From Aphrocallistes beatrix (taxonomy: Eukaryota > Porifera > Hexactinellida > Sceptrulophora > Aphrocallistidae), in assembly GCA_963281255.1 (NCBI GenBank), contig OY725490.1, positions 2,914,001 through 2,978,000 of the forward strand: 64,000 nucleotides of DNA, in the 5' to 3' direction. How positions within the stretch are numbered: the first letter of the stretch is position 1; each line of letters begins with the position of its first letter. The position numbers and the translations under genes are program-made. This document shows, in pieces, positions 10,311-54,012 of the stretch. Below the pieces are notes generated by a model, which was given only the letters and a program-made list of their open reading frames with translations, had not been told where the DNA came from and searched no databases.

Positions 10311-11574
10311 TTAGAAAATCTGTAGACAAGCAGTATCTTTCTGATCCACAACGATAATCCGACCTGTATTATCTAGTGCTATTCCAAACGGATAATAGAA
10401 CTCTCCCAAACCCTGACCTTTCTTACCAAACTTATGTATCTGCTCTCCCTCCTGACTAAATACATACACACAGTCATTACTGTGGTCACTCATAATGATG
10501 TTATATTCTCTGTCTATGTCGAAGCAGTATGGACTGTTTGTTTGTTTAGCATTACCACGAGTTATGAGTCTGTTGGTTAGAACGTGATCTGAACTGAACA
10601 CAAACAAACACGGATCACTCTCATCTAGCACCAATACTCTGTCTCTTGGAACCTTGACGTCACGTGGACACTTCAACACTCCTATTCCTAGCATGGAATG
10701 GAACCTGAGATCTTCTGTCAAGATTTGGATTCTATGGTTATAACGATCACACACGTAGATATTGTTATTTCTGTCAGAAACATCCAGACCTTGTGGATAC
10801 TTGAATTGTCCTTCTCCACTCCCTTCACTACCAACACTCTTCACTAGCTTACCTCCTAGCTCGTACACATTCATACAGTGACCTTTGTATTGTGTAACAA
10901 TCACTTTATTGAGAGAAATACAAATTCCTTCTGAGCGATTCATTTTCTCACTAAACATAAATAGATAGTCTCCGTTACACTTGTACACGATGGTTGTTTT
11001 CATCTGCTATGTAAATATTTCCAGTTTTGTAGTGTATAGCTAGACATCTGGGACAGTTCAATTCTCCTGGAGCTTTCTGGTCTGTGGTTTTCTTACAGGA
11101 GTAAGCAGTAGGGAGGTGTTTCGTCTTGTAGTCAGGGACGACAGGTTTGACTTGAGGAGGGAAGGTGCGAGTGAGAGAAGTGTTCGACTCACCATTAAGC
11201 TTAATACTCCCGAGCTGTTCTATGTCAGTTTCGAATAGAGGATCCCATTCAAACTCTATTGCATGGTCTAGTTGATTTGAGAGCTTTGTAATTTGTTCTT
11301 CGATTAACTTGTTAACTCCTTCTCTCGTCTCATTGAGTGGAATATCAGTGAGTTTATCTGAGCAGAATGATTTGACTGTGTTTAATGTTTCAAGCATTTT
11401 ACTCAATTCTCGTGTCTTCTTATTAAACTCCGTTTCTATCTCTTCAACACGAGAGAGGAGGTTATTCTCTCTGATTCGTAGAGTTTCATGAGACCGCTTG
11501 AAGCTGTCTTGTATCTTCTTTCTGGCTTCTTTTATTTGCTCAATGAAATTAGTCTTTACTTCGGCACTCGCCAT
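10311..11574 (-). pseudogene. NHL copy A: coiled-coil/NHL-repeat protein, broken by an 8-nt deletion
   Basis: The first 199 residues (start 11572-11574, MASAEVKTNFIEQIKEAR) give the N-terminal coiled coil, EFEWDPLFETDIEQLGSIKL and the first NHL strand up to NNHRVQV. Intact copies continue with FSCNGDYLF. Here eight bases are missing at about 10978, so the frame meets a stop directly after VQV. The rest of the propeller (10311 to about 10985) stays open in another frame and is otherwise well preserved, ending in TACLQIF. A truncated coiled-coil protein could still be made. Blade residues differ from the other copies at the shared variable positions (see findings). No RING or B-box is present. 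Confidence 0.85.
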
Positions 11575-11879
11575 TATTATCTAAATTCGCTAGAGATCAA
11601 TAAGTATTAGGTTGAAGTGAGTTAACTGATCAGAAACAAAAGGGGTGTTGTTTCTATTTTGAATCCTAAACTATTTGAAATGATTTTGCTTACGCATACA
11701 GGGATCAGTGGCGGCGGAACCAAATTATTATTAGGGGGGACTTTTCCTCCGGAAAAAAAAATTGTCCTTATACACTCATAGGCTAGTTTAAAAATGTAAT
11801 TCGCCTATAAAAGATACACACAAATGATATCTACATATATACATGAATATTTGCTTAACTAAATTCAGTAGTACGTATA

Positions 11880-12870
11880 TAAGAATACATTGCTACGCTG
11901 TGAAATAAATTTGCTGGTATTTTCAAAAGAACAAGCGCGCTTCGCTTGCTTGTGCTGCGCGGCTGGCGGACACTTTGTGTCCGCCGGAGGCTCCCTTCGG
12001 TCGCATGGGGTCCCATTGGTTAATTATAAGGGAGATAACATCTATAAATACGTCTGTCCTACTGTTATAATCGATATCGCAGAAAAATCACCAAATTTAT
12101 CAATTCTTAAAAATTTGATGAGTAATGATGACGTCATAACAAAGTGATGAGTCATCATTTTTTGATGATAGCTGCATCATATGTGAGGTATGTTAGTATA
12201 CAGATTCTATTAAAGTTTCAGCCTTCTATCTCCTATAATGGCTGAGTTATGCATGAATAAGTAACAGGGTTGGGTTTTGTCCGTCCAAAACAGGTTTTGG
12301 ACAGGGCAGTGGACAAAACCTGGTTTTAACCGGTTAAAACCGGACAAAACTGGACAAAACCTAATAGAAACTGTAAATCATTGCAGTGGGTACGAAACAG
12401 TTTAGGATGGAAAGAGAGCGAGGACAATGAATGGATTTTCTTGCTAACGCCTGTTTATTACCATAACTATATTTTGTATTCGATTTATCATGGAAGACAC
12501 GAACAACACTTGGACAAAACCTGGACAAAACTTGGACAAAACCTGGACAAAACCGTTAATGAGGAATATGAATTAAATTTTGAGGTTTTGTCCAGTTTTG
12601 TCCACCCAAGAGGTTTTGGACAGGACGGTTTTAACCTGGTTAAAACCACTAGGTTTTGTCCAAGTGGACAAAACCTGCCAACCCTGTGAATAACTGTATT
12701 GCTTAACTTTTAAAAATGTGACAATGACGTCATAATTCCATGATGAGTCGACATTTTGCTCTGAACTCAGAACTTACTGGAGCCATAGCCAAAAGACTCC
12801 CACATGCCAAAAATCAGCTTTCTGTGACTGGCAGTTTCTTCAATCAATTCGTTACAGAGATATATATATC
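11880..12870. repeat. Interspersed repeat, copy 1, interrupted by a MITE
   Basis: Contains ACAAGCGCGCTTCGCTTGC, the palindrome GCGGACACTTTGTGTCCGC and GGCTCCCTTCGGTCGC, then ATGACGTCATAA and CAGCTTTCTGTG. The same order occurs at 12880-13410, and the GC-rich end recurs inverted at 13435-13580. The GC-rich hairpin terminus beside AT-rich sequence resembles non-autonomous Helitron ends, but I cannot prove the class. Confidence 0.6.
12257..12686. mobile_element. MITE with CAGGGTTGG termini nested in the repeat
   Basis: Begins CAGGGTTGGGTTTTGTCC (12265) and ends inversely with GGACAAAACCTGCCAACCCTG. The interior is full of GGACAAAACC in both orientations. TGAATAA occurs on both sides (12254-12260 and 12687-12693), and the paralogous repeat at 13225 shows the uninterrupted site (GAATAACTGTATTGC). 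No transposase frame is seen. Confidence 0.75.
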
Positions 12871-12879
12871 CTTACTATT

Positions 12880-13410: not shown

Positions 13411-13434
13411 TACACACATAGACAAACAATAATC

Positions 13435-15229: not shown

Positions 15230-16720
15230 TTAGAAAATCTGCAGGCAAGCAGTATCCTTCTGATCCACGACAATAATCTGACCTGTGTTATCTAGTGCTA
15301 TTCCATAGGGATAATAGAACTCTCCCAAACCCTGACCTTCCTTACCAAACTTATATATCTGCTCTCCCTCCTGACTAAATACATACACACAGTGATTACT
15401 GTTGTCACTCATAATGATGTTATATTCTCTGTCTATGTCGAAGCAGAATGGATTGTTTGTTTGTTTATCATCACCACAAGTTATGAGTCTGTTGGTTAAA
15501 AGGTGATCTGAACTGAACACAAACAAACACGGATCACTCTCATCTAGTACCAATACTCTGTCTCTTGGAACCTTTACGTCACGTGGACACTTCAACACTC
15601 CTATTCCTAGCATGGAATGGAACTTGAGATCCTCTGTCAAGATTTGGACTCTATTGTTGTCATTATCACACACGTAGATATTGTTATTTCTGTCAGAGAC
15701 ATCCAGACCATATGGATGCTTGAATTGTCCTTCTCCACTCCCTTCACTACCAACACTCTTCACTAGCTTACCTCCTAGCTCGTACACATTCATACAGTGA
15801 CCACTGTATTGTGTAACAATCACTTTATTGAGAGAAATACTAATTCCTTCTGGGTGATTCATTTTCTCACTAAACATAAATAGATAGTCTCCGTTACAGC
15901 TAAACACTTGTACTCGATGGTTGTACTCATCTGCTATGTAAATATTTCCAGTTTTGTAGTGTATAGCTAGACTTTTAGGATAGTGTTATGAGGATTTAGA
16001 AACCTGTAGAAAGACACTAGCATTCTTAGTCAACCTAAGCGTCTATTTCATAGTTTCGTGTAACTTGTTAGTCTTACTAGTTCCTGTTCATTGCTATTCT
16101 GTTTGAACGATATTTCTCTAGTACTCAATACTTACTCTATCTATATCCCAATATATTCGGGCACGTGTTAGTGTAGAATAGAATTCGGTCATATCACAAT
16201 AGTATAATTCTCCTGGAGCTTTCTGGTTTGTGTATTTCTTACAGGAGTAAGCAGTAGGGAGGTGTTTCGTCTTGTAGTCAGGAACGACAGGTTTGACTTG
16301 AAGAGGGAAGGTACGGGTGAGAGAAGTGTTCGACTCACCATTAAGCTTAATACTCCCGAGCTGTTCTATGTCAGTTTCGAATAGAGGGTCCCATTCAAAT
16401 TCGATTGCATGATATATACATTTTTGTACCTTCATAATTTCATCATCTATTACAGAGTTAACGCCTGCTCTCGCGTTTGCAAATTTGTTATCCTTGAGTC
16501 TATCTGAATTCACTGATTTAACTGCATTCAAAACTTCCAACATTTCATTCATTTCTTGAGTCTTCTTATTAAACTCCGTTTCTATCTCTTCAACACGAGA
16601 GAGGAGGTTATTCTCTCTGACTCGTAGAGCTTCATGAGACCGCTTGAAGCTGTCTTGTATCTTCTTTCTAGTTTCTCTTATTTGCTCAATGAAATTAGTC
16701 TTTACTACGGCACTCGCCAT
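15230..16720 (-). pseudogene. NHL copy B: coiled-coil/NHL-repeat protein, interrupted by an insertion
   Basis: The N-terminal half (start 16718-16720, MASAVVKTNFIEQIRETR) runs through the coiled coil and EFEWDPLFETDIEQLGS to APGELYY. A roughly 214-bp insertion (15985-16198) then diverts translation into 23 unrelated residues and a stop. Past the insertion the frame resumes at PKSLAIHYKTGNIYIADE and continues unbroken through six NHL repeats to TACLQIF. Its coiled-coil segment (residues about 66-104) is the most divergent of the six copies. Apart from the insertion no other lesion is seen, so the break is probably recent. Confidence 0.85.
15985..16198. mobile_element. Insertion inside NHL copy B, possibly a solo LTR
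   Basis: Other NHL copies lack this segment. The break is flanked by ATAGT on both sides (15980-15984 and 16199-16203). Read with a 4-bp duplication ATAG, the insert starts TGTTATGAGG and ends ATATCACA, the TG...CA ends of an LTR. Inverted terminal similarity is otherwise poor and there is no reading frame. A small MITE of another family is the alternative. Confidence 0.6.
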
Positions 16721-19247: not shown

Positions 19248-20503
19248 TTAGAAAATCTGCAGACAAGCAGTATCCTTGTAATCCACGACGATAATCCGAC
19301 CTGTGTTATCTAGTGCCATTCCATACGGACCATAGAACTCTCCCAGACCCTGACCTTGATTACCAAACTTATGTATCTGCTCTCCCTCCTGACTAAATAC
19401 ATACACACAGTGATTATTGAAGTCACTCATAATGATGTTATATTCTCTGTCTATGTCGAAGCACCATGGACTGTTTGTTTGTTTAGCATTACCACGAGTT
19501 ATGAGTCTGTTGGTTAGAACGTGATCTGAACTGAACACAAACAAACACGGATCACTCTCATCTAGCACCAATACTCTGTCTCTTGGAACCTTTACGTCAC
19601 GTGGACACTTCAACACTCCTATTCCTAGCATGGAATGGAACTTGAGATCCTCTGTCAAGATTTGGATTCTATGGTTATAACGATCACACACGTAAATATT
19701 GTTATTTCTGTCAGATACATCCAGACCTTGTGGATACTTGAATTGTCCTTCTCCACTCCCTTCACTACCAACACTCTTCACTAGCTTACCTCCTAGCTCG
19801 TACACATTCATACAGTGACCATAGTATTGTGTAACAATCACTTTATTGAGAGAAATACAAATTCCTTCTGGGTGATTCATTTTCTCACTAAACATAAATA
19901 GATAGTCTCCGTTACAGCTAAACACTTGTACTAGATGGTTGTTTTCATCTGCTATGTAAATATTTCCAGTTTTGTAGTGTATAGCTAGATTGCTAGGACT
20001 GTAAAATTCTCCTGGACTTTCTGGTCTGTGTATTTCTTACAGGAGTAAGCAGTAGGGAGGTGTTTCGTCTTGTAGTCAGGGACGATAGGCTTGACTTGAG
20101 GAGGGAAGGTGCGGGTGAAAGAAGTATTCGACTCACCATTAAGCTTAATACTCCCGAGCTGTTCTATGTCAGTTTCGAATAGAGGATCCCATTCAAACTC
20201 TATTGCATAGTCTGATTGATCTGAAAGTTCTGTAATTTGATCTTCGATTAATTTGTTAACACCTTCTCTTGTCTTGTTGAGTTTATCTGAGTTGAATGAT
20301 TTCACTATTTTCAAAGTTTCTAACAGTTTATTCATTTCATGAGACTTCTTATTAAACTCGGTTTCTATCTCTTCAACACGAGAGAGGAGGTTATTCTCTC
20401 TGATTCGTAGAGCTTCATGAGACCGCTTGAAGCTGTCTTGTATCTTCTTTCTGGTTTCTCTTATCTGCTCAATGAAATTAGTCTTTACTTCGGCACTCGC
20501 CAT
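19248..20503 (-). pseudogene. NHL copy C: coiled-coil/NHL-repeat protein with a 1-nt frameshift
   Basis: Start at 20501-20503 (MASAEVKTNFIEQIRETR). The frame is open through the coiled coil and EFEWDPLFETDIEQLGS to DQK, where one base is missing (about 20016; other copies read CCTGGAGCTTTCTGG, this one CCTGGACTTTCTGG). The shift ends translation after about 172 residues. All six NHL repeats stay open in the other frame (19248 to about 20010), ending TACLQIF. The coiled coil is four residues shorter than in the other copies. Blade 3 residues equal those of copy A, while blade 5 matches copy E. The single indel could be real or an assembly error. Confidence 0.85.
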
Positions 20504-22517: not shown

Positions 22518-23219
22518 AACAAATTTTCAGTGTTCCACAGTAACAAACATAAATATAATTTTAGAACATTTTAATGACGTGGGACCAAGGTTGTGTCAAA
22601 CTCAATGATTTGAATTATTTTTTTGTAATATTGCATCTGATCATTTACATAAAACACACCAGATCAATCAATTCAATCCTTTGCGTTATTCAAATCGTTC
22701 AGCTCATTCATTTTAATCATTCAATTAAATTAAATCAATCAATTCAACTCAATTCAAATCAAATCAATTCAATTCAATTTAATTCAATTCAGATACCGTA
22801 GATAATTTTTAGCCCCATTTAGCATTTAGCCCCTGAAGAAAAATACATGTTTCACAATACATATGCAAGAGAGCTTTCGATAAATATAACCGCAAGAGTG
22901 AACCAAGAAATTTAGAACTCTCTTTTTGGAGGGGGATGGTTTGAGGGCTGGCAACTATTCGAGTATATACGGTCATTCAAATAAATATCAATTCAGATAA
23001 TTCGAATCAATTATAATCAGTTCAAATCAATTCAAATCAAATCAATTCAATTCAATTCAATTAATTTAAATGAAATTTCAGATCATTCAGATCATTCTAT
23101 TTTATTCAATGACAACATTCAGATCAATCAACTCAATCATTTCTTATTAACCAACTCAATCAAATCAAATAAAAAAATGAAGGTTTTTTTAAATCAAATT
23201 GATTTGACTCAACCTTGCG

Positions 23220-23294
23220 TGGGACCTCATGGCCGAGTGGTTAGCGCACTGAGTCGATAACAAAGTGACGCGGGGTCGAATCCCAAGCAAGTCA
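23220..23294 (+). repeat. tRNA-like sequence, unit 2
   Basis: Same core as 22445-22517 with intact A box TGGCCGAGTGG and B-box-like GGGTCGAATCC. Acceptor pairing is worse. Confidence 0.5.
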
Positions 23295-23347
23295 ACAAAT
23301 TTTCAGTAAGCAAACATAAATATAATTTTAGAACATTTTAATGACGT

Positions 23348-23420
23348 GGGACCTCATGGTCGAGTGGTTAGTGCACTGAGTCCATGGCAAAGTGACGCAG
23401 GTTCGAATCCCAAGCAAGTC
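23348..23420 (+). repeat. tRNA-like sequence, unit 3
   Basis: Same core, A box TGGTCGAGTGG, B box GGTTCGAATCC. Confidence 0.5.
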
Positions 23421-23483
23421 AACAATTTTTCAGTATTCCAAAGTAACAAACATAAATACAATTTTAGAACATTTTAAAGATGT

Positions 23484-23556
23484 GGGACTTCATGGCCGAG
23501 GGGTTAGCGCACTGAGTCTATAACAAAGTGAGGCGGATTCGAATTCCAAGCAAGTA
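23484..23556 (+). repeat. tRNA-like sequence, unit 4
   Basis: Same core, more degenerate (TGGCCGAGGGG and GATTCGAATTCC). Confidence 0.45.
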
Positions 23557-23869
23557 AACAATTTTTCAGTGTTTCAAAGTAACAAACTGACTCGATAGCG
23601 AAGGAGCGGAGCGTAGAAACAAATCAAAATAATAAAAAAACACAGAAAATTTTACAAAAAAGGAATACATGCAAAGCAATGACTCTAGGAATAAAGGGAA
23701 AGATAGAGTTAAAAAGATAAAAAGGTAACTAAAAGGGGAATTCCAAACATAATAGCAAAATACAACGAAATTACAGCTTGTAGACATAATGCAAAAAGAG
23801 TACACCATTATGGCGAATGAATTAAAAATCGTTAGAACAAAATGGATTTTATCTACAAAAAACTACATA

Positions 23870-26060
23870 TAATCCTCTCCTGGTGGGAGGATTGAAAATA
23901 GTTATCCAAAATGCCCATTCTCCAAATAATGCCACTAAGGACCACCTCCTGGTGCGGAGATTGAGAAGAGTCACCCAAAATGCCCATTCTCACATAATAC
24001 CACAGAACACCACCTCCTGGTGGGGGGATTGAAAAGAGTTACCCAAAATGCCCATTCTCCACATAATGCTACTGAGCACCCCATCCAGATGAGTAGATTG
24101 AAAATAGTCACCCAAAATGCCCATTCTCCACATAATGCCAAAGAGCACCCCCTCCTGGTGGGGAGATTGAGAAAAGTCACCCAAAATGCCCATTCTCCAC
24201 ATAATGCCACTGAACACCCCCTCCAGGTGGGGGGATTGAGAAGAGTCACCCAAAATGCATATTCTCCACATAATGCCACAGAGCATCCCATCCTGGTAGG
24301 GAGATTGAAAAGAGTCACCCAAAATGCCCATTCTCCACATAATGCCACAGGGCACCCCCTCCTGGTAGGGAGATTGAAAAGAGTTACCCAATATGACCAT
24401 TCTCACATAATGCCATTGTGCACCCCCTCCTGGTGGGGAGATTGAGAAGAGTTACCTAAAATGCCCATTCTCCACATAATACCACAGAACACCACCTCCT
24501 GGTGGGGGGATTGAAAAGAGTCACCCAAAATGCCCATTCTCCACATAATGCTACTGAGCACCCCATCCAGATGAGTAGATTGAAAATAGTCACCCAAATG
24601 CCCATTCTCCACATAATGCCAAAGAGCACCCCCTCCTGGTGGGGAGATTGAGAAAAGTCACCCAAAATGCCCATTCTCCACATAATGCCACTGAGCACCC
24701 CCTCCAGGTGGGGGGATTGAGAAGAGTCACCCAAAATGCCCATTCTCCACATAATGCCACAAAGCACCCCCTCCTGGTAGGGAGATTGAAAAGAGTTACC
24801 CAATATGACCATTCTCACATAATGCCATTGTGCACCCCCTCCTGGTGGGGAGATTGAGAAGAGTAACCCAAAATGCCCATTCTCCACATAATGCCACAGG
24901 GCACCCCCTCCTGGTAGGGAGATTGAAAAGAGTTACCCAATATGACCATTCTCACATAATGCCATTGTGCACCCCCTCCTGGTGGGGAGATTGAGAAGAG
25001 TTACCTAAATGCCCATTCTCCACATAATACCACAGAACACCACCTCCTGGTGGGGGGATTGAAAAGAGTCACCCAAAATGCCCATTCTCCACATAATGCT
25101 ACTGAGCACCCCATCCAGATGAGTAGATTGAAAATAGTCACCCAAAATGCCCATTCTCCACATAATGCCAAAGAGCACCCCCTCCTGGTGGGGAGATTGA
25201 GAAAAGTCACCCAAAATGCCCATTCTCCACATAATGCCACTGAACACCCCCTCCAGGTGGGGGGATTGAGAAGAGTCACCCAAAATGCCTATTCTCCACA
25301 TAATGCCACAGAGCATCCCCTCCTGGTAGGGAGATTGAAAAGAGTCACCCAAAATGCCCATTCTCCACATAATGCCACAGAGCACCCCCTCCTGGTAGGG
25401 AGATTGAAAAGAGTTACCCAATATGACCATTCTCACATAATGCCATTGTGCACCCCCTCCTGGTGGGGAGTTTGAGAAGAGTTACCTAAAATGCCCATTC
25501 TCCACATAATACCACAGAACACCACCTCCTGGTGGGGGGATTGAAAAGAGTCACCCAAAATGCCCATTCTCCACATAATGCCAAAGAGCACCCCCTCCTG
25601 GTGGGGAGATTGAGAAAAGTCACCCAAAATGCCCATTCTCCACATAATGCCACTGAGCACCCCCTCCAGGTGGGGGGATTGAGAAGAGTCACCCAAAATA
25701 CCTATTCTCCACATAATGCCACAGAGCACCCCCTCCTGGTAGGGAGATTGAAAAGAGTCACCCAAAATGCCCATTCTCCACATAATGCCACAGAGCACCC
25801 CCTCCTGGTAGGGAGATTGAAAAGAGTTACCCAATATGACCATTGTCACATAATGCCATTGAGCACCCCCTCCTGGTGAGTAGATTGAAAAGTGTTACCC
25901 AAAATTCCCATTCTCCACATAATGCCACAGAGCACCCCCTCTTGGTCGTGGAGTTGAAGAGGGTTTGCCAATATCCACTTTCTCCACACTATGCCACAAT
26001 GCGCCATATTTTGTTGGAAGAATTGAAAAAGACAACCAAAACATCTCTTCTTCACATAAT
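23870..26060. repeat. 69-bp minisatellite, about 30 units, with higher-order period near 1030 bp
   Basis: The unit is CACCCAAAATGCCCATTCTC, then CACATAATGCCACAGAGCAC, then CCCCTCCTGGTAGGGAGATT and GAAAAGAGT (for example successive units at 24110 and 24179). Because 69 is divisible by three, long frames stay open on both strands and in more than one frame. Variant units recur in fixed order: the variant CAGAACACCACCTCCTGG is at about 24000, 24481, 25030 and 25511, so a block of about 15 units (1030 bp) has been duplicated. Units decay at the right end (25900-26060). There is no start context, splice signal or codon-bias support for a protein. Confidence 0.85.
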
Positions 26061-28110: not shown

Positions 28111-28115
28111 ATCTT

Positions 28116-31669: not shown

Positions 31670-32941
31670 CTAGAACATCTGTAGACAAGCAGTATTCTTC
31701 TGATCCACGACAATAATCCGACCTGTGTTATCTAGTGCTATTCCATAGGGATAATAGAACTCTCCCAAACCCTGACCTTGCTTACCAAACTTATGTATCT
31801 GCTCTCCCTCCTGACTAAATACATACACACAGTGATTACTGTAGTCACTCATAATGATGTTATATTCTCTGTCTATGTCGAAGCAGTATGGATTGTTTGT
31901 TTGCTTGGCATTACCACGAGTTATGAGTCTGTTGGTTAGAACGTGATCTGAACTGAACACAAACAAACACGGATCACTCTCATCTAGCACCAATACTCTG
32001 TCTCTTGGAACCTTTACGTCACGTGGACACTTCAACACTCCTATTCCTAGCATGGAATGGAACTTGAGATCCTCTGTCAAGATTTGGACTCTATTGTTGC
32101 TACGATCACACACGTAGATATTGTTATTTCTGTCAGAGACATCCAGACCATGTGGATGCTTGAATTGTCCTTCTCCACTCCCTTCACTACCAACACTCTT
32201 CACTAGCTTACCTCCTAGCTCGTACACATTCATACAGTGACCACTGAATTGTGTAACAATCACTTTATTGAGAGAAATACAAATTCCTCTCGGGTGATTC
32301 ATTTTCTCACTAAACACAAATAGATAGTCTCCGTTACAGCTAAACACTTGTACTCGATGGTTCCCTAGATCTGCTATGTAAATATTTCCAGTTTTGTAGT
32401 GTATAGCTAGACTTCTAGGACCGTATAATTCTCCTGGAGCTTTCTGATCTGTGTTTTTCTTACAGGAGTAAGCAGTAGGGAGGTGTTTCGTTTTGTAGTC
32501 AGGGACGACAGGTTTGACTTGAGGAGGGAAGGTGCGGGTGAGAGAAGTGTTCGACTCACCATTAAGCTTAATACTCCCGAGCTGTTCTATGTCAGTTTCG
32601 AATCGAGGATCCCATTCAAATTCTATTGCATGGTCTGTAATAGCCAATAATTTTGTGACTTTACGTTCAATCGAGGTAAATATTTCTTCACGAGTGTCGT
32701 TAAGTTTATTATCAGTGAGTTTATCTGAGCTAACTGATTTAACTGTATTCAAGGCTTCCAACATTTCATTCATTTCTTGAGTCTTCTTATTAAACTCCGT
32801 TTCTATCTCTTCAACACGAGAGAGGAGGTTATTCTCTCTGACTCGTAGAGCTTCATGAGAACGCTTGAAGCTGTCTTGTATCTTCTTTCTAGTTTCTCTT
32901 ATTTGTTCTGTAAAGTTAGTTCTAACTTGAACACTCGCCAT
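31670..32941 (-). CDS. NHL copy D: intact coiled-coil plus six NHL repeats, no RING or B-box
   Basis: 423 residues, single exon. Residues 10-108 form a predicted coiled coil (RKKIQDSFKRSHEALRVREN, RVEEIETEFNKKTQEMNEML). Then comes a conserved bridge EFEWDPRFETDIEQLGSI and a proline-rich linker to about 168. Residues 170-423 hold six NHL repeats, read from the recurring pattern P-x-G ... IYIAD-x-x-NHRVQVF: repeats start near 174, 217, 262, 304, 351 and 397. The propeller end of TRIM-NHL proteins is known to bind RNA or protein; here the ubiquitin-ligase part is absent, so it would act as an oligomeric recognition or scaffold protein, probably cytosolic (no signal peptide). It shares its 5' flank (CATCGAAATT...GGTAGAATTACTAAAGG) with copy E and its 3' flank with copies A-C. 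Confidence 0.92.
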   Translation of the reverse strand: MASVQVRTNFTEQIRETRKKIQDSFKRSHEALRVRENNLLSRVEEIETEFNKKTQEMNEMLEALNTVKSVSSDKLTDNKLNDTREEIFTSIERKVTKLLAITDHAIEFEWDPRFETDIEQLGSIKLNGESNTSLTRTFPPQVKPVVPDYKTKHLPTAYSCKKNTDQKAPGELYGPRSLAIHYKTGNIYIADLGNHRVQVFSCNGDYLFVFSEKMNHPRGICISLNKVIVTQFSGHCMNVYELGGKLVKSVGSEGSGEGQFKHPHGLDVSDRNNNIYVCDRSNNRVQILTEDLKFHSMLGIGVLKCPRDVKVPRDRVLVLDESDPCLFVFSSDHVLTNRLITRGNAKQTNNPYCFDIDREYNIIMSDYSNHCVYVFSQEGEQIHKFGKQGQGLGEFYYPYGIALDNTGRIIVVDQKNTACLQMF

Positions 32942-34059: not shown

Positions 34060-36900
34060 CGTGCTTCACGCATGCTCAATTCGTATTTAATTTAAGGAAT
34101 TGAGCTTGCTCAACTCTTGCTCCAAAGTTCTCCATGCCTAACTCTTAATCTAGATTTGGGCATGATCAACTCTTAATGAATACAAATTCTGAATGTCATA
34201 CTAAGTATGATATCTTGGAAAATACATTATGAAATTCTCACAATTAATTTACTTATTTTGGAGCGAAAATAATATCACAAAGATCTCCAGTTTGCCTTCA
34301 CCTTTTTCATGCGCTTGCAATCCTTACAGCCTATAAATGCATCGCCATACCAAGAGAATATAGTCTGGCACAGTTACTGTTCAAACAAGTTTACTATGTC
34401 AGACTATTCATACTCACTTGGTATTGCGGGCATTTGTGGGCTGTAGGATTGTAACTGCATGAGAAAGGCGGAGACAAACTAAGTAAGAAAATAAACTGAA
34501 GTTTGTAACGCTGGAAATATTGTTTTTCGTGGGAGTGCATAATGTATTTCCGTCTCAACTTAGGTAGGTAGGGACTTCACAGTATAAAGACTATCTAAAT
34601 CCACCATTGAAAGGAAAGCATTCAAAGTGGCGCAGCATAATTGAAATGTTCCCACTAGTGGTGGGACGTTGTCGTCGCCACATTTTTTTATTGCGCAAAA
34701 GGTCAATGTCTGACTGTCTGGAATTATCTAGACTAGCTTCTGACATTTTTCATTCGTGAGGAAGGCTGTTCGCAGGAATATGTATGCTATCGAATAGGGT
34801 AGGAGTTGGCACACATTCCGTGGTTTAGGGATGCATTCAATACTTTAAGATTCTTAAGGAACCGCAAATTAAATAGCTTCGCGGACCACGTCGCTGTTAC
34901 CTTATCTTGGACAGTGAGTATTGCATTTTCATGGAAAAAATTAATTAGTATCCTCTGGTTTATCAATTTCATACTTCATTTTAGCAACCTGAATTTTCTT
35001 ATGGCACAATAATTTCCTACTTGATCGAGTATTCTATTCAAAACAATCCGACCTATGCCTCCAACGCGAAAATGACCCACACATCTATTTTAAATTTCAA
35101 AATAGTACTTGAATGGGACTGAGTTCCCCTTAGCGGTCCACATAGGATTTCAGGGAGTGCACAGGATTCGAAATTTTGTATTATGGTTAACAAAAGAAGG
35201 TCCACTAGAATCATTCGTGAATGATTGGCAGGCCGGATTTAAGGCAGGGAAAAGTAGGAATTTGCCCAGGGACCACATACTTAGGGAGTAAGGACTAAAA
35301 ACAGGGGTATTGCCCGTATTGGAAAGGGGGACCTCATTTCAAATTTGCTAGGGGGCACACAGTTAGTGTACGAATGAGATGGCAACATTGTTTGATTAGA
35401 AGTAGCGGTTTTGTGTATTTTCGCTTTTGCTGTTTGAGTTGAGGGGTTGGTTGAAACCTTATTACGCTTCAAAAAGTACGTAGACACATTTTCTAGATAT
35501 TTCATGTTTTCATGGATTTTATTAATATTAGAATACAGAAATACTAGCACTAGCACAACCAATGTATTTAAACTATTATTATACACGCAATTTCTGGGGA
35601 CCCACACATATAAATTCGGCCATACCTACAAGTTCCAATTAAGTGAAAAATGAGAATACTTCTTAATAGGGTATTTAGAAGGGAATTTGAAACAGAATGT
35701 ATGAGAGTGCTCTTGGTAAACGAGAGGATCTTTATAAAACTGTCGAATATAGCTATCATTGGAAAATTGGAAAGGAATGTCTTGAGATATCTCTGTGATC
35801 ATTTTTCTAAATGCTCTGACGAAAGGCAACCCGTTCCTCGGGTATTTCCTGTGTTGAGGATTATCTGCTTTCACGGGTGTGAACATGACAGCATGTCCAC
35901 GATAGGTCAATTCCACTTTAACAACTTGGTACATCTGACTATAAGTCCAATCACTGTCAAACAATGTCGTAAAAGGAAGGAGAGCTTCTACTGCATCACG
36001 ATGGTACGCATTGAACATCGCATCAAAATGGACAACTGTTAAGTACAATGGCATATCAGTTCCAATGTAGGTGCGGTTTGGAGCTAGTTTCTCATTGACT
36101 TTGACATGTGGCAGGCATGTTTCTTGATAAGATTGGTTGGTCCTTTCGGAATTGTGGTGCAAATAATAATTTGGTACTCCAACTGCTGGCTCATGTTCAA
36201 TGAGAAAATTTTCAAAAGATCGCCATGGCGATATCGATTTCATTTCAACGGAGAGTATTTCTCATGATAAGAAAGCTGTACATCATCATCCGCGAATACA
36301 TAATAAAGATAATCCACATTTCTAGCCTGAGCTGCCTTGTAGATCAGGTTTTTTCCTGTATTCAAGGTAGTTGGGGCAGAAGAATATATGTACTGTACGT
36401 GACTCAAAGTAGAATTCAGGCATTTCTTTTTAAAACTAAAAACAATCACATCGCGTCTGCATTCGTCTGGATCACCCAATAATTGATTCCCAGTTAAGAA
36501 ATAATCTGGGATACATTGTTCTGTCTGGATTAGATAGACGAAAAGTTTTTTCGATGCAAACTGATTGCTAAGTATTTTAAACATATCTAACTTTTCGAAG
36601 TGCAACGCATTAAAGTATAAGAAAAATAATATTGCACTCCCGATCAACATGAATACCAAAGTTCTCTGTACATAAGAAAACTTCATTATTGCATATATGA
36701 AGCTTTCTTGAGTTAGATGGAATAAAAAATGAAATACTGAAGTTACAGTTATCTTAATTGCTGATTTAGGTACTTCGGACGACCACCGTTTTAGCCACAA
36801 TTGTTACTATTTTGAACTAAATAGCATCAAAATCAGGTCGAATTTGTTAATTATACCAAGTTCTATGCGTGTTATAGATACTATAGATAAGGTCAATTTT
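34060..36900 (-). repeat. Segmental duplication, left copy (partner about 45500-47960)
   Basis: Collinear with 45500-47960 in the same orientation, with indels. Shared landmarks outside the gene include CAAAGATC...CAGTTTGCCTT, TGCATAATGTATTTCCGTCT, GCTTCTGACATTTTTCATTC and TTAAATAGCTTCGCGGACCA. A piece of the outer flank (34130-34240) also recurs at 41914-42010. The unit carries the glycosyltransferase-like gene. Confidence 0.8.
35626..36800 (-). pseudogene. Type II membrane glycosyltransferase-like gene, copy 1, frameshifted
   Basis: Homologous over its whole length to the intact gene at 46787-47860. The aligned start is near 36686; the open frame extends further upstream without support. 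The N-terminal half reads through the signal anchor and DYLYYVFADDDVQL to EKYSPLK, then meets a stop. One base is missing at about 36250 relative to the intact copy (CAACGGAG against CAACAGGAG), after which the remaining 205 residues (KSISPWRSFENFLIEHEP to SLNWNL) follow in another frame. Protein identity outside the lesion is very high, so the duplication is recent. A sequencing error would restore the gene and should be excluded. Confidence 0.75.
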
Positions 36901-39103: not shown

Positions 39104-40339
39104 TTAGAATAGCTGAAGAACGTAGTTAGGATTATGAGAAGCTACTATGATTCTATTTTCAGAATCGACAGCTATTCCTCTAGGTTTATATAGTTCCCCA
39201 ATTCCTGTTCCTTCCCTACCGAACTTGTGTATCAGCTCTCCTTTGCTTGTAAATATTAGGACGTAATGAGCTGTCCAATCAGTTATTAAGATATTCTGTT
39301 TAGCATCCAGACAGAAGTGGTGTGGATGAGTCACATGCCCACCTTCTCCAATTGGAATTATCTTCCTAATCAGCTGATGAGTGTAATTGTAGTAGCGAAT
39401 CAGATGTTCTCCTTCTGTCAGCACTACTATCTCCTCAGTTGTGATCTTGATGTCGAGAGGTTTAGGAATTTCTGGAATAACTGAATTGAATGTAAGATTC
39501 AAGTTCGAACATTGAATTCTGTTATTGCTACTGTCACATATATAAATTCTATTTTTATCGTTGGAAGCAGCAACACCGCGAGGGAAGGAAAATTCAAGTT
39601 TCTTCTTTCCTTTTTTCCCAACTGACTTCAAGAACATCCCTTCAGCAGTGTATTCATTCAGACAATGACCCATGTACTGTGTAACATACACTGAGTTGTT
39701 ACTGATACAGATACCGCAGGGAAGATTCATCTTTTCACTGAAATCGAATAAGAATTCAAAATATTTGGTGAAGACTTGGACACGATGATTCCCATCATCG
39801 CATACATAAACATTGTTTGTTTCAGGATGGATAGCGATTGAACGAGGATCACAGAACATTCCAGCTGACTTTGATTTCTCTTCACTGTGTCTACCAGCTA
39901 CAATTACTGGGTTTTCTATTTCTTTATAGTCCCGAACAGAACTCAACCTAATCGCTCCTAACTTACTTAACCCAGCTTCCAACTGTGCATCCCACTCCAA
40001 CTCTACTCTCCTCATGCTAGCTCTCTCCTTCTCCAAATCTTCCCTTAGCTTCTTCACATGGTCATCCAACTCAGAAACGTGTTGCAACACTAGATCTTTG
40101 ATATTATTTATTTTGGCTTTCGCTAATTGCATCTCTTTCAGTTGATTCAAGTCCTCAATCTGTTCATTAATACCTTCACCTCTGTATCGCTCCTCTAGCT
40201 GATCCAATTGTGATAGCAGTTCAGTTTCCCTCTCTCCTAGCACTTGATGAGCTTTAGCGAACTTCCTTCCTATCTCCTCTCTCACCTTCTCTACATTCGA
40301 CCGAAACCTATCCTCGCTTAACACACTAACGCTAGCCAT
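39104..40339 (-). CDS. Divergent coiled-coil/NHL-repeat protein (second subfamily), intact
   Basis: 411 residues from the Met at 40337-40339 (MASVSVLSEDRFRSNVEKVR). This start aligns residue for residue with the MAS start of copies A-F; a Met 11 codons upstream (40372) is the longest alternative. Order: coiled coil (about 10-125, with ERETELLSQLDQLEERYRGE and LREDLEKERASMRRVELEWD), a linker, then NHL repeats with RSIAIHPETNNVYVCDDGNH, GICISNNSVYVTQYMGHCLN, FPRGVAASNDKNRIYICDSS, HHFCLDAKQNILITDWTAHY and PRGIAVDSENRIIVASH. It has the same architecture as copy D but low overall identity, so it is an older paralogue. The pseudogene at 62670-63840 is its close relative. No RING or B-box. Confidence 0.88.
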   Translation of the reverse strand: MASVSVLSEDRFRSNVEKVREEIGRKFAKAHQVLGERETELLSQLDQLEERYRGEGINEQIEDLNQLKEMQLAKAKINNIKDLVLQHVSELDDHVKKLREDLEKERASMRRVELEWDAQLEAGLSKLGAIRLSSVRDYKEIENPVIVAGRHSEEKSKSAGMFCDPRSIAIHPETNNVYVCDDGNHRVQVFTKYFEFLFDFSEKMNLPCGICISNNSVYVTQYMGHCLNEYTAEGMFLKSVGKKGKKKLEFSFPRGVAASNDKNRIYICDSSNNRIQCSNLNLTFNSVIPEIPKPLDIKITTEEIVVLTEGEHLIRYYNYTHQLIRKIIPIGEGGHVTHPHHFCLDAKQNILITDWTAHYVLIFTSKGELIHKFGREGTGIGELYKPRGIAVDSENRIIVASHNPNYVLQLF

Positions 40340-46786: not shown

Positions 46787-47860
46787 CTACAAGTTCCAAT
46801 TAAGTGAAAAATGAGAATACTTCTTAATAGGGTATTTAGAAGGGAATTTGAAACAGAATGTATGAGAGTGCTCTTGGTAAACGAGAGGATCTTTATAAAA
46901 CTGTCGAATATAGCTATCATTGGAAAATTGGAAAGGAACGTCTTGAGATATCTCTGTGATCATTTTTCTAAATGCTCTGACGAAAGGCAACCCGTTCCTC
47001 GGGTATTTCCTGTGTTGAGGATTATATGCGTTCACGGGTGTGAACATGACAACATGTCCTCGGTAGGTCAATTCCACTTTAACAACTTGGTACATCTGAC
47101 TATAAGTCCAATCACTGTCAAACAAAGTCGTAAAAGGAAGGAGAGCTTCCACTGCATCACGATGGTACGCATTGAACATCGCATCAAAATGGACAACTGT
47201 TAAGTACAATGGCATTTCAGTTCCAATGTAGGTGCGGTTTGGAGCTAGTTTCTCATTGGCTTTGATATGTGGCAGGCATGTTTCTTGATAAGATTGGTTG
47301 GTCCTTTCGGAATTGTGGTGCAACAAATAATTTGGTACTCCAACTGCTGGCTCATGTTCAATGAGAAAATTTTCAAAAGCTCGCCATGGTGATATCGATT
47401 TCCTTTCAACAGGAGTGTATTTCCCATTATAAAAAAGCTGTACATCATCATCCGCGAATACGTAATAAAGATAATCCACATTTCTAGCCTGAGCTGCCTT
47501 GTAGATCAGGTTTTTTCCTGTATTCAAGGTACTTGGGGCAGAAGAATATATGTACTGTACGTGACTCAAAGTCGAATTCAGGCATTTCTTTTTAAAACTA
47601 AAAACAATCACATCGCATCTGCATTCGTCTGGATCACCCAATAATTGATTCCCAGTTAAGAAATAATCTGGGATACATTGTTCTGTCTGGATTAGATAGA
47701 CGAAATGTTTTTTCGATGCAAACAAATTGTTGCTAAGTATTTTAAGCACATCCAACTTTTCGAAGTGCAACGCATTAAAGTACAAGCAAAATATTGCACT
47801 CCCGATCAACATGAATACCAAAGTTCTCGGTACATAAGAAAACTTTATTATTGCATACAT
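46787..47860 (-). CDS. Type II membrane, glycosyltransferase-like protein, intact copy
   Basis: 357 residues, single exon. A short N-terminus is followed by one hydrophobic segment (about 12-30, TLVFMLIGSAIFCLYFNA) with no cleavage motif, the layout of a Golgi type II enzyme. The luminal part contains FVYLIQTEQCIPDYFLTG, a YLYYVFADDDVQLF block whose Asp137-139 resembles the DxD nucleotide-sugar/metal site of GT-A folds, several N-x-S/T sites, and a long C-terminal part with TVVHFDAMFNAYHRDAVEAL and SQMYQVVKVELTYRG. I cannot place it in a named GT family, and the enzyme activity is inference. The frameshifted sister copy lies at 35626-36800. Met at 47858-47860 is the first in the frame. Confidence 0.7.
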   Translation of the reverse strand: MYAIIKFSYVPRTLVFMLIGSAIFCLYFNALHFEKLDVLKILSNNLFASKKHFVYLIQTEQCIPDYFLTGNQLLGDPDECRCDVIVFSFKKKCLNSTLSHVQYIYSSAPSTLNTGKNLIYKAAQARNVDYLYYVFADDDVQLFYNGKYTPVERKSISPWRAFENFLIEHEPAVGVPNYLLHHNSERTNQSYQETCLPHIKANEKLAPNRTYIGTEMPLYLTVVHFDAMFNAYHRDAVEALLPFTTLFDSDWTYSQMYQVVKVELTYRGHVVMFTPVNAYNPQHRKYPRNGLPFVRAFRKMITEISQDVPFQFSNDSYIRQFYKDPLVYQEHSHTFCFKFPSKYPIKKYSHFSLNWNL

Positions 47861-48260
47861 GAAGATTTCTTGAGTTGGATGGAATGAAAAATGAAATACT
47901 TAAGTAAATACAGTTATCTTAATTGCTGATTTAGGTTTTATGGGGGAATGTTAGAGATATTATAGATAGTCAATTTTTACAAGTATATATACTAATTTGT
48001 ATCGTGCATTCGATGAAGCATAGCATTCTAGACACTAAGGCAATGGCGCGCTCAACATTTTGGGGACCAGGGATTGGTTAGTTAATTAGATGTTGTATGT
48101 TGATATTTTCTATATCGTCTTGGGAAATTTGAAATTTTATGTAAAATTTATTAACTCCACCCCTTAGACATAGAAATTTTAGATTAGCTCTTGACATTTT
48201 CCACAATGAGAAAATCTGTTCGCAAGAATATGTATATATGCTACCGAATAGGATAGGAGC

Positions 48261-50160: not shown

Positions 50161-51432
50161 TTAGAATATATGTAGACAAGCAGTATCCTTCTGATCCACG
50201 ACAATAATCCGACCTGTGTTATCTAGTGCTATTCCATACGGACGATAGAACTCTCCTAAACCCTGACCTTGATTACCAAACTTATGTATCTGCTCTCCCT
50301 CCTGACTAAATACATACACACAGTGATTATTGAAGTCACTCATAATGATGTTATATTCTCTGTCTATGTCGAAGCACCATGGATTGTTTGTTTGTTTATC
50401 ATCACCACGAGTTATGAGTATGTTGGTTAGAACGTGATCTGAACTGAACACAAACAAACACGGATCACTCTCATCTAGCACCAATACTCTGTCTCTTGGA
50501 ACCTTTACGTCACGTGGACCCGTCAACACTCCTATTCCTAGCATAGAATGGAACTTGAGATCTTCTGTGAAGATTTGGACTCTACTGTTGTCATGATCAC
50601 ACACGTAGATATTGTTATTTCTGTCAGAGACATCCAGACCACGTGGATACTTGAATTGTCCTTCTCCACTCCCTTCACTACCAACACTCTTCACTAGCTT
50701 ACCTCCTAGCTCGTACACATTCATACAGTGACCACTCAATTGTGTAACAATCACTTTGTTGAGAGAAATACAAATTCCTCTCGGGTGATTCATTTTCTCA
50801 CTAAACATAAATAGATAGTCTCCGTTACAGCTAAACACTTGTACTCGATGGTTGTCACGATCTGCTATGTAAATATTTCCAGTTTTGTAGTGTATAGCTA
50901 GACTTCTAGGATAGTTCAATTCTCCTGGAGCTTTCTGGTCTGTGTGTTTCTTACAGGAGTAAGCAGTAGGGAGGTGTTTCGTTTTGTAGTCAGGAACGAC
51001 AGGTTTGACTTGAGGAGGGAAGGTGCGAGTGAGAGAAGTGTTCGACTCACCATTAAGCTTAATACTCCCGAGCTGCTCTATGTCAGTTTCGAATAGAGGA
51101 TCCCATTCAAACTCTATTGCATGGTCTGATTGATTTGAAATTTCTGTAATTTGATCTTCGATTAATTTGTTAACACCTTCTCTCGTCTTATTTAGTTTAT
51201 TATCAGTGAGTGTGTCTGACGTCAATGATTTAATTTTGTTCAAAGCTTCCAACATTTCATTCATTTCTTGAGTCTTTTTATTAAACTCCGTTTCTATCTC
51301 TTCAACACGAGAGAGGAGGTTATTCTCTCTGACTCGTAGAGCTTCATGAGAACGCTTGAAGCTGTCTTGTATCTTCTTTCTAGTTTCTCTTATTTGCACT
51401 GTAAAGTTAGTTCTAACTTGAACACTCGCCAT
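50161..51432 (-). CDS. NHL copy E: intact coiled-coil plus six NHL repeats
   Basis: 423 residues from Met at 51430-51432 (MASVQVRTNFTVQIRETR), chosen because copies A-F all start at MAS; the frame is open 22 codons further up. Architecture is the same as copy D. Blade residues at the shared variable positions are its own: NY before the first P-x-S, RD in ADRDNHR, LS in TQLSGH, YPRG, CDHDNSR, NNPW, SDFNNH and FYRPYG. Blade 4, invariant elsewhere, here has TGPRD instead of CPRD. The 5' flank matches copy D and the 3' flank matches copy F, so the gene looks like a recombinant of two unit types. Intact, no signal peptide. Confidence 0.92.
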   Translation of the reverse strand: MASVQVRTNFTVQIRETRKKIQDSFKRSHEALRVRENNLLSRVEEIETEFNKKTQEMNEMLEALNKIKSLTSDTLTDNKLNKTREGVNKLIEDQITEISNQSDHAIEFEWDPLFETDIEQLGSIKLNGESNTSLTRTFPPQVKPVVPDYKTKHLPTAYSCKKHTDQKAPGELNYPRSLAIHYKTGNIYIADRDNHRVQVFSCNGDYLFMFSEKMNHPRGICISLNKVIVTQLSGHCMNVYELGGKLVKSVGSEGSGEGQFKYPRGLDVSDRNNNIYVCDHDNSRVQIFTEDLKFHSMLGIGVLTGPRDVKVPRDRVLVLDESDPCLFVFSSDHVLTNILITRGDDKQTNNPWCFDIDREYNIIMSDFNNHCVYVFSQEGEQIHKFGNQGQGLGEFYRPYGIALDNTGRIIVVDQKDTACLHIF

Positions 51433-52450: not shown

Positions 52451-52740
52451 CACATTATAAGCATTTAAGTGGTTAAAATTAGATGCATACAGGGTAAAAT
52501 ACCTTATACGAGCTGTTGAGATCTCATCACTTAGATTGACTATTTTTAAAGAGAAAACAGAGTATGGTAGCGTACATGAATGAGCATCTAAAATCTAATT
52601 CTCCCAAACCCTGACCTCCCTTACCAAACTTATCGAGATAAGGAAAGGTGTGCAAATCTGTATTGATTAGTCTGTATATCAGACAAATAAACAGGTAATC
52701 CTATCAGTTAGTCCAAAATTAGCAATTAACTATATACTAA

Positions 52741-54012
52741 TTAGAATATCTGTAGACAAGCAGTAGGCTTCTGATCCACGACAATAATCCGACCTGTATT
52801 ATCTAGTGCTATTCCATACGGACGATAGAACTCTCCCAAACCCTGACCTTGCTTACCAAACTTATGTATCTGCTCTCCCTCCTGACTAAATACATACACA
52901 CAGTGATTGTAGTAGTCACTCATAATGATGTTATATTCTCTGTCTATGTCGAAGCACCATGGACTGTTTGTTTGTTTAGCATTACCACGAGTTATGAGTC
53001 TGTTGGTTAGAACGTGATCTGAACTGAACACAAACAAACACGGATCACTCACATCTAGTACCAATACTCTGTCTCTTGGAACCTTTACGTCACGTGGACA
53101 CTTCAACACTCCTATTCCTAGCATGGAATGGAACTTGAGATCCTCTGTCAAGATTTGGACTCTATTGTTGCCATTATCACACATGTAGATATTGTTATTT
53201 CTGTCAGAGACATCCACACCATGTGGATTCTTGAATTGTCCTTCTCCACTCCCTTCACTACCAACACTCTTCACTAGCTTACCTCCTAGCTCGTACACAT
53301 TCATACAGTGACCACTGTATTGTGTAACAATCACTTTATTCAGAGAAATACAAATTCCTTCTGGGTGATTCATTTTCTCACTAAACATAAATAGATAGTC
53401 TCCGTTACAGCTAAACACTTGTACTCGATGGTTGTACTCATCTGCTATGTAAATATTTCCAGTTATGTAGTGTATAGCTAGGCTTCTAGGACTGTATAAT
53501 TCTCCTGGAGCTTTCTGGTCTGTCGGTTTCTTACAGGAGTAAGCAGTAGGGAGGTGTTTCGTCTTGTAGTCAGGGATGACAGGTTTGACTTGAGGAGGGA
53601 AGGTGCGGGTGAGAGAAGTGTTCGACTCACCATTAAGCTTAATACTCCCGAGCTGTTCTATGTCAGTTTCGAATAGAGGATCCCATTCAAACTTTATTGC
53701 GTGGTCTGATTGACTTGAAAGTTCTGTAATTTGATCTTCAATCAACTTGTTAACACCTTCTCTTGTCTTATTAAGTGGAATATCAGTGAGTTTATCTGAG
53801 CTGACTAATTTAACTGTGTTCAATGCTTCTAACAGTTTATTCATTTCTTGAGTCTTCTTATTAAATTCTGTTTCTATCTCTTCAACACGAGAGAGGAGGT
53901 TATTCTCTCTGACTCGTAGAGCTTCATGAGACCGCTTGAAGCTGTCTTGTATCTTCTTTCTTGTTTCCTTTATTTGCTCAATGAAATTAGTTTTTACTTC
54001 GGCACTCGCCAT
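52741..54012 (-). CDS. NHL copy F: intact coiled-coil plus six NHL repeats
   Basis: 423 residues, MASAEVKTNFIEQIKETRKK start at 54010-54012. The coiled coil is of the TREGVNKLIEDQITELSSQS type shared with copies C and E. Six NHL repeats follow. Variable blade residues are YS, EY (ADEYNHR), YS (TQYSGH), NPHG, CDNGNNR, NSPW, SDYYNH and FYRPYG, with VDQKPTACL at the end. The 5' flank (CATTTTTATCTAAATT) is of the A/B/C type and the 3' flank is shared with copy E. No lesion is seen. Confidence 0.92.
   Translation of the reverse strand: MASAEVKTNFIEQIKETRKKIQDSFKRSHEALRVRENNLLSRVEEIETEFNKKTQEMNKLLEALNTVKLVSSDKLTDIPLNKTREGVNKLIEDQITELSSQSDHAIKFEWDPLFETDIEQLGSIKLNGESNTSLTRTFPPQVKPVIPDYKTKHLPTAYSCKKPTDQKAPGELYSPRSLAIHYITGNIYIADEYNHRVQVFSCNGDYLFMFSEKMNHPEGICISLNKVIVTQYSGHCMNVYELGGKLVKSVGSEGSGEGQFKNPHGVDVSDRNNNIYMCDNGNNRVQILTEDLKFHSMLGIGVLKCPRDVKVPRDRVLVLDVSDPCLFVFSSDHVLTNRLITRGNAKQTNSPWCFDIDREYNIIMSDYYNHCVYVFSQEGEQIHKFGKQGQGLGEFYRPYGIALDNTGRIIVVDQKPTACLQIF

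What the first reader, a model, noticed from the sequence alone, without database searches (positions are those of the whole stretch)
10311..54012. NHL copies A-F vary at the same propeller-face residues in blade after blade
The six copies share long identical framework (for example GLDVSDRNNNIYVCD and the whole of blade 4, VKVPRDRVLVLDESDPCLFV). Differences cluster at repeated positions (numbering of copy D; order A,B,C,D,E,F). 173-174: NC,YY,YS,YG,NY,YS. 192-193: EN,EY,EN,LG,RD,EY. 232-233: YK,YS,YY,FS,LS,YS. 262/264: YQ,HY,YQ,HH,YR,NH. 280-281/283: RYH,NDN,RYH,RSN,HDS,NGN. 350/352: SY,NF,SW,NY,NW,SW. 367-368: HS,NS,FN,YS,FN,YY. 397: Y,Y,G,Y,R,R. Each falls in the P-x-G or D-x-x-N loop of a blade, loops that in known NHL propellers lie on one ligand-binding face. 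Changes are often radical (charge or aromatic swaps). This is the pattern of a diversifying recognition surface on a fixed scaffold, attached to a coiled coil and without RING or B-box. I know of no described system of this kind; a role in self/non-self or microbial recognition is inference.
Basis: partly seen in the sequence, partly recalled or inferred. Interest (0 to 1): 0.85.

Follow-up and report, generated by a model that had tools for sequence, protein, structure and literature searches.

The report
Hypervariable propeller-face protein family
An animal genome, probably a glass sponge's, carries a large family of propeller-shaped proteins whose bodies are nearly identical while the few amino acids on the binding face have been driven to differ from copy to copy, as in recognition systems that tell self from non-self.

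Summary
In 21 close coiled-coil-NHL copies, four positions per blade (residues either side of the P of P-x-G, and the two after the D of D-x-x-N; 24 codons fixed by motif) differ about ten times more at amino-acid level than the rest of the propeller: pN/pS 1.6 against 0.34, codon-model omega 4.15 against 0.42 (p 2e-9). Synonymous rates differ 1.5-fold in that model. An AlphaFold model puts them in, or one residue past, the d-a and b-c loops of one face; opposite-face loops are conserved. Twelve of 14 positions equivalent to LIN41's RNA contacts are among the 24 fastest codons. The genome holds at least 145 such loci (some fragments), none within 20 kb of a B-box hit. The pattern recurs in a second clade (omega 3.0); in a third the face varies most but omega is about 1. 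Three of the window's six copies are frame-disrupted. The kind of system is not unknown: fungal HNWD receptors diversify the same loops of a WD40 propeller. New is the NHL scaffold, in an animal, at this scale. Ligand and role are unknown; non-self recognition is the best inference.

The parts
31673..32941 (-). Copy D: intact single-exon CC-NHL gene, 423 aa; reference numbering
   Evidence: Pfam NHL E 1e-28; AF2 NHL domain pLDDT about 90
50164..51432 (-). Copy E: intact CC-NHL gene
52744..54012 (-). Copy F: intact CC-NHL gene
10311..11574 (-). Copy A: CC-NHL copy disrupted by an 8-nt deletion in blade 1 (near 10979/10980)
15230..16720 (-). Copy B: CC-NHL copy disrupted by about 220 nt inserted between linker and blade 1 (about 15981-16201)
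19248..20503 (-). Copy C: CC-NHL copy disrupted by one missing base in the linker (near 20017)
39107..40339 (-). Divergent intact CC-NHL paralogue (about 36-38% identical to D), member of a second clade with the same face pattern
62673..63661 (-). Remnant of a CC-NHL gene of the second kind, in several frames
32630..32941 (-). D: N-terminal helical (coiled-coil-like) part, residues 1-104; residues 59-104 are a second variable region with pS 0.56
   Evidence: AF2 helices 2-74 and 77-101, low confidence
31673..32431 (-). D: six-bladed NHL propeller, residues 171-423
32414..32425 (-). D face: blade 1 d-a loop, residues 173-176
32363..32368 (-). D face: blade 1 b-c loop, residues 192-193
32288..32296 (-). 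D face: blade 2 d-a loop, residues 216-218
32243..32248 (-). D face: blade 2 b-c loop, residues 232-233
32150..32158 (-). D face: blade 3 d-a loop, residues 262-264
32099..32104 (-). D face: blade 3 b-c loop, residues 280-281
31886..31894 (-). D face: blade 5 d-a loop, residues 350-352
31838..31843 (-). D face: blade 5 b-c loop, residues 367-368
31745..31753 (-). D face: blade 6 d-a loop, residues 397-399
31700..31705 (-). D face: blade 6 b-c loop, residues 413-414

Best explanation
A large family of proteins, each read from one open frame as an N-terminal helical (coiled-coil-like) stalk plus a six-bladed NHL propeller, with no signal peptide or membrane segment seen and therefore probably cytosolic. 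The propeller is a fixed scaffold; about 20 side chains on its d-a/b-c face (four per blade, blades 1, 2, 3, 5, 6) form a binding site under diversifying selection. Copies arise by duplication, scaffold segments appear to be shared out between copies by gene conversion, and selection keeps new face residues. Shown here: family, scaffold, face, omega above 1 in two of three clades. Supported indirectly: exchange of segments. Inferred: each copy binds a different, fast-changing non-self ligand (microbial, viral or allogeneic), and the stalk couples binding to an effector, perhaps by pairing with B-box proteins, some of them NHL-like, that the genome also encodes. It works like the fungal HNWD receptors but is not one of them.
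For: Face against rest: pN/pS 1.59 against 0.34 in 21 copies, 1.67 against 0.35 in window A-F. Codon ML omega 4.15 (2dL 35.6) against 0.42, alpha 3.58 against 2.35. Holds on per-blade trees (summed p 6e-5 over blades 1, 2, 3, 5, 6) and a star tree (omega 4.4); 8 of 9 FEL-positive sites (p below 0.1, uncorrected) are face sites. 0 of 100 neutral simulations with a different tree per blade reach that omega; maximum 1.83. 10 disjoint pairs: face N 181 / S 14, rest N 127 / S 104. Opposite-face loops (58 codons) pN 0.031 against 0.345. AF2: 19 of 24 face codons in d-a/b-c loops, 5 at the second residue of strand a. 12 of 14 LIN41 RNA-contact equivalents among the 24 fastest codons (blade register inferred). 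74 distinct faces among 75 copies. Segment distances uncorrelated in the 7 pairs tested (n 11); pS 0.56 in the coil against 0.06-0.16 in the blades. At least 145 loci. 0 of 75 matched parts with a TM-like stretch.
Against: Third clade (32 copies): face omega 1.04 with raised synonymous rate; disjoint pairs 1.04: fast, but not shown to be above neutral. Second clade: ML omega 3.0, but tree-free pN/pS is only 1.10 over all pairs and 1.55 over disjoint pairs. Face pS in the close set is about twice the rest. Blade 6 alone is not significant (p 0.37) and blade 1 is marginal (p 0.067). Blade 4's face is slow. 12 of 29 close loci (my count), including half of the window's six, are disrupted or truncated. 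No known effector domain is fused. One assembly only: no alleles, expression or ligand. The same positions bind RNA in LIN41, so RNA is not excluded. The residue bias of the window's clade (Y, S, R) is weaker in the other two.
Confidence: 0.6

Rival explanations
1. An RNA-recognition repertoire: like LIN41, Brat and Mei-P26, these NHL faces bind RNA, and the copies have diversified to bind different RNAs, for example viral or transposon RNA or different host messages.
For: The hypervariable positions are the ones that contact the RNA hairpin in DrLIN41; best fold match is the LIN41-RNA complex; published work argues for rapid evolution of the NHL RNA-binding surface (passages).
Against: TRIM71 carries 9 K/R and 1 D/E at the 24 positions; here mean net charge is +1.1 to +2.8 per clade and ranges from -3 to +6. 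In the window's clade the face is rich in Y, S, R, H, N and W, which looks more like a protein-binding paratope (the comparison is recalled).
Confidence: 0.2
2. Ordinary functional diversification of substrate adaptors: each copy binds its own endogenous partner and selection acted during neofunctionalisation, with no conflict or non-self ligand.
For: Paralogues within one genome can show omega above 1 for this reason; B-box genes, two of three examined NHL-like by eye, exist in the genome as possible partners; omega near 1 in the third clade.
Against: At least 145 loci, 74 distinct faces among 75 copies and 12 of 29 close loci broken fit birth-and-death of a recognition repertoire better than fixed adaptors.
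Confidence: 0.15
3. No adaptive meaning: relaxed constraint, a local mutation hotspot, or old variation surviving gene conversion at the loops.
For: Face pS is about 2x the rest; half of the window's copies are broken; omega about 1 in the third clade.
Against: Codon ML gives alpha 3.58 against 2.35 but beta 14.85 against 0.98; loops of the opposite face are conserved; simulated recombination at neutrality never gives omega above 1.83.
Confidence: 0.04

Closest known systems
Fungal HNWD / HET-D, HET-E, HET-R NLR family (Podospora anserina)
   Same: Propeller scaffold kept alike by concerted evolution; positive selection on four codons per repeat, one pair flanking a conserved residue in the d-a loop and one pair in the b-c turn, all on the top face (PMC1805685, PMC2873952, PMC4986451; passages); intracellular receptors in a syncytial organism (the latter recalled).
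   Different: WD40 instead of NHL; NACHT and (in some) HET domains fused there, absent here; repeat-number variation there, six blades in the 75 near-full-length copies here; 10 family members there, at least 145 loci here; fungus against animal.
TRIM-NHL proteins (TRIM71/LIN41, TRIM2/3, Brat, Mei-P26, Thin)
   Different: No B-box hit within 20 kb and no RING pattern within 3.5 kb upstream; face hypervariable between copies, whereas most RNA-binding residues of LIN41 are identical between species.
TRIM/finTRIM B30.2 (SPRY) families of vertebrates
   Same: Duplicated TRIM-derived genes whose C-terminal domain diversifies under pathogen pressure (recalled; TRIM papers seen as search listings only).
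   Different: Different binding domain; RING and B-box usually kept (recalled); not tested here.

Membership tests
TRIM-NHL (class VII TRIM) | RING finger | tested here: inconclusive
   No RING pattern in 3.5 kb upstream of seven window copies (regex); no genome-wide RING search was run
TRIM-NHL (class VII TRIM) | One or two B-boxes | tested here: not met
   24 B-box hits in the genome (48 of 48 candidates scored), none within 20 kb of any of 145 CC-NHL loci
TRIM-NHL (class VII TRIM) | Coiled coil before the NHL domain | tested here: inconclusive
   AF2 gives two long helices (2-74, 77-101) at block pLDDT 47-73; no coiled-coil predictor run
TRIM-NHL (class VII TRIM) | Six-bladed NHL propeller | tested here: met
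LIN41-type RNA-binding NHL | Basic contact residues on the top face | tested here: inconclusive
   Net charge of the 24 positions -3 to +6 over 69 copies of three clades, means +1.1, +1.5, +2.8, against +8 in TRIM71: not a family feature, but single copies come near; RNA binding untested
Fungal HNWD receptors | WD40 repeats and NACHT domain | tested here: not met
   Pfam finds NHL, no WD40 or NACHT, in D, E and the 39 kb paralogue
Fungal HNWD receptors | Positive selection at four codons per blade in the d-a and b-c loops | tested here: met
   Window clade and second clade; omega not above 1 in the third clade
Fungal HNWD receptors | Concerted evolution of scaffold segments | tested here: inconclusive
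   Indirect support: uneven pS along the gene, no significant correlation in 7 segment pairs, LD near background beyond about 30 nt, shared runs longer than in 400 of 400 permutations. A star-like history, rate differences along the gene or stalk misalignment could add to these
Fungal HNWD receptors | Death-inducing incompatibility function | not testable with these tools
   needs genetics in the host

The most novel reading that the evidence does not exclude
A germline-encoded repertoire of cytosolic recognition proteins in a syncytial animal (probably a glass sponge), independently built on the same two-loop, four-residues-per-blade plan as the fungal heterokaryon-incompatibility receptors. 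Because a glass sponge shares one cytoplasm across its tissue, such proteins could police that cytoplasm against invading microbes or against nuclei and proteins of a foreign individual after fusion.
Probability: 0.25. Interest if true: 0.92.

Novelty: new variant of a known kind. Interest (0 to 1): 0.76.

Why it matters
A family of at least 145 loci with binding-face diversification would be a new candidate immune or allorecognition repertoire in a non-bilaterian animal, where few large repertoires of this sort are described (recalled). It would also show that evolution has twice reached nearly the same solution (a propeller's d-a and b-c loops, residues placed around a conserved anchor) with different repeats in fungi and animals. 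The positions are defined residue by residue, so ligand-binding tests can be designed at once.

Tried and rejected
Relaxed constraint or mutation hotspot: rejected for the window's clade, not for the third clade. Recombination as the cause of a false omega: tested with per-blade trees, a star tree, disjoint pairs and 100 neutral simulations. Membrane or secreted receptor: no TM-like stretch (19-residue mean hydropathy above 1.6) in the matched parts of 75 copies and no hydrophobic N-terminus in D, E, F; hydropathy only, residues upstream of the matched part and possible upstream exons not covered. Upstream RING/B-box exon: not found within the limits. Wnt search gave nothing, but the tool warns that nothing rang anywhere, so it proves nothing alone. 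tRNA scan of the window: none. I did not run a genome-wide RING search, a coiled-coil predictor, HyPhy/PAML, a deeper AF2 alignment, or Foldseek against viral models. The AF2 coordinates were not in the Python box, so the face was assigned from strand order, not from surface geometry, and burial was not measured. Paper searches listed no description of a hypervariable NHL family; most subscription papers, and preprints, are not held.

Rows left out: of 98 matches, 90 were fetched, one is in the window and seven were not obtained; matches found only were not fetched. The close set holds 21 of 29 loci at about 60% identity or more. L016, L018, L019, L020, L022 and L025 were left out as too diverged (63-71% identity), L015 and L026 for lack of most of the NHL region, and N-terminal pieces of broken copies. 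L016, L018, L019, L020 and L025 are in the 18-member test; the broken copies are not. Six of 75 copies fell in no cluster there. L011 and L013 were left out of the correlations, and blade 4 of the summed test. The composition uses 19 of the 24 positions (blade 4 and 415 left out).
Full report
WHAT IS THERE. The window is bases 2,914,001-2,978,000 of contig C3 in an unnamed 100.5 Mb, 28-contig genome. Six related genes lie on its minus strand, A-F, plus a divergent intact paralogue at 39107-40339 and a remnant at 62673-63661. Each intact gene is one open frame of about 411-423 codons from the M of MAS: a helical N-terminal part, a linker, and an NHL propeller (Pfam NHL E 1e-28 for D). D, E and F are intact. 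A has an 8-nt deletion, C lacks one base and B carries about 220 extra nucleotides, so those three cannot be read through as they stand. I cannot tell pseudogene from assembly error, least of all for C's single base.

FAMILY SIZE. Three searches with different members gave 98, 102 and 103 matches at E 0.001 or better (the tool scored only about 100 of some 2,000 candidates each time). Merged, with starts at least 1,500 bases apart, they make 145 loci on 18 contigs, a lower bound that includes fragments, in nine clusters of four or more, the largest with 28 loci at C3 2.74-3.11 Mb. The genome has 24 B-box hits and none lies within 20 kb of any of the 145. Two of three B-box loci examined (L093 and L094) also look like B-box plus NHL genes by eye, so ordinary TRIM-NHL-like proteins probably exist beside this family (not scanned with Pfam).

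CHECK OF THE PATTERN. To avoid choosing sites by their variability I fixed a set from motif alone: in every blade, the residues before and after the P of P-x-G and the two after the D of D-x-x-N (or its equivalent), 24 codons in all. In 21 close copies, pN/pS is 1.59 at these codons and 0.34 in the other 229 NHL codons; in the window's six it is 1.67 and 0.35; in intact D, E, F alone 1.99 and 0.34. No random 24-codon set of 100,000 reached the face mean pN. Face pS is itself about twice the rest (0.216 against 0.106), so synonymous change is raised there, but far less than amino-acid change. A codon likelihood model gave omega 4.15 at the face (alpha 3.58, beta 14.85; against omega 1, p 2.4e-9) and 0.42 elsewhere. 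Site by site, uncorrected, 9 codons have p below 0.1 for positive selection and 45 for negative; 8 of the 9 are face codons and the ninth (370) is in a b-c loop. Blade 4's face is slow: 5 tokens in 21 copies at each of its two loops, beta 2.9 with no synonymous change (p 0.03).

ROBUSTNESS. In 11 copies, seven tested pairs of gene segments show no significant correlation in who is close to whom, so a single tree may be wrong. With a tree per blade the face excess stays (summed p 6e-5 over blades 1, 2, 3, 5, 6), though blade 1 (p 0.067) and blade 6 (p 0.37) are weak alone; a star tree gives 4.4. Neutral face codons simulated on six different blade trees and fitted on one gave a maximum omega of 1.83 in 100 runs. 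Ten disjoint closest pairs, needing no tree, gave face N 181 / S 14 against rest N 127 / S 104; the face alone exceeds the neutral expectation at p 8e-4.

OTHER CLADES. There are 74 distinct faces among 75 near-full-length copies. In the clade of the 39 kb paralogue (19 copies) face omega is 3.0, p 2e-7, though tree-free pN/pS is 1.10 over all pairs and 1.55 over nine disjoint pairs. In the third (32 copies) 15 of the 20 most variable columns are face columns, but omega is 1.04 with a raised synonymous rate, and its two sub-clusters give 1.39 (p 0.12) and 1.00; disjoint pairs agree (1.04). That clade shows fast change without proof of positive selection; saturation may hide it, which I did not test.

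MECHANISM OF CHANGE. Synonymous divergence is 0.56 in residues 59-104 of the stalk but 0.10 in the linker and 0.06-0.16 in the blades of the same 13 copies. Runs of shared variants are longer than in 400 of 400 permutations, and one pair (L010-L008, z 5.5) passes the family-wise level of 5.28, while L004-L010, codons 203-260, does not (z 4.7). I read this as gene conversion spreading scaffold segments while selection keeps face residues different. It is indirect: that permutation ignores rate differences along the gene, a star-like history would also give low correlations, and the stalk may be partly misaligned.

WHERE IT LIVES. Mitochondrial COX1 (C28) uses TGA for W and has 16 AGA codons, many at positions where animal COX1 usually has S (recalled), while the R residues at usually conserved sites are all CGN; there are two nuclear-receptor DNA-binding domains and no Wnt hit (uninformative alone). 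From recalled knowledge of mitochondrial codes this fits a glass sponge. Published glass-sponge genomes are 61 and 80 Mb and rich in single-exon genes (PMC10280926, PMC10282587; passages). Glass-sponge tissue is mainly a syncytium, and Wnt ligands were not found in two species (PMC5684314; passages). The identity is an inference.

COMPARISON. In Podospora HNWD receptors, four codons per WD40 repeat are positively selected, as two pairs each flanking a conserved residue, one pair in the d-a loop and one in the b-c turn, on top of the propeller, with concerted evolution of the repeats (PMC1805685, PMC2873952, PMC4986451; passages). The design here is nearly the same on a different repeat (here the b-c pair is adjacent, not split). 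I found no paper describing it for NHL proteins (searches).

FUNCTION. Shown: a binding face under diversifying selection on a fixed scaffold, in two of three clades. Inferred: cytosolic location (no TM-like stretch in the matched parts of 75 copies), non-self ligand, signalling through the stalk. RNA remains possible since these positions bind RNA in LIN41, but face charge here runs from -3 to +6 against +8 in TRIM71. In the 21 close copies the face (19 of the 24 positions) is rich in Y (24%), S (14%), R (12.5%), H and N (8% each) and W (2%); the other two clades are less so, with G, S, R or N leading.

Noticed in passing
23877-25998: 69-nt minisatellite, about 31 copies, open over long stretches in frames of both strands.
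   Followed up: no
27466-28111 and 59228-59458: 11-nt AT-rich array (about 59 copies) and a 21-nt array (about 11 copies, 97% matches).
   Followed up: no
23218-23570: 136-nt tandem unit containing a tRNA-like stretch (GGTTAGCGCACTG...GGTTCGAATCCC), perhaps a tRNA-derived SINE; ARAGORN calls no tRNA there.
   Followed up: partly
35626-36803 and 46787-47899: Duplicated ORF with a hydrophobic N-terminal stretch; the intact copy has no Pfam hit; 97% identical over two 300-nt stretches; the first copy is split between frames.
   Followed up: partly
D residues 59-104 (window 32630-32767): Second variable region, in the stalk: pN 0.31 and pS 0.56, ratio below 1; it looks like an old or exchanged segment rather than a selected face.
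   Followed up: partly
15981-16201 (copy B, minus strand): Insertion of about 220 nt in copy B; origin not determined.
   Followed up: no
clade on C6, C10, C14, C16, C17 and others: Synonymous rate at the face is about twice that of the rest while omega is about 1; unexplained.
   Followed up: partly
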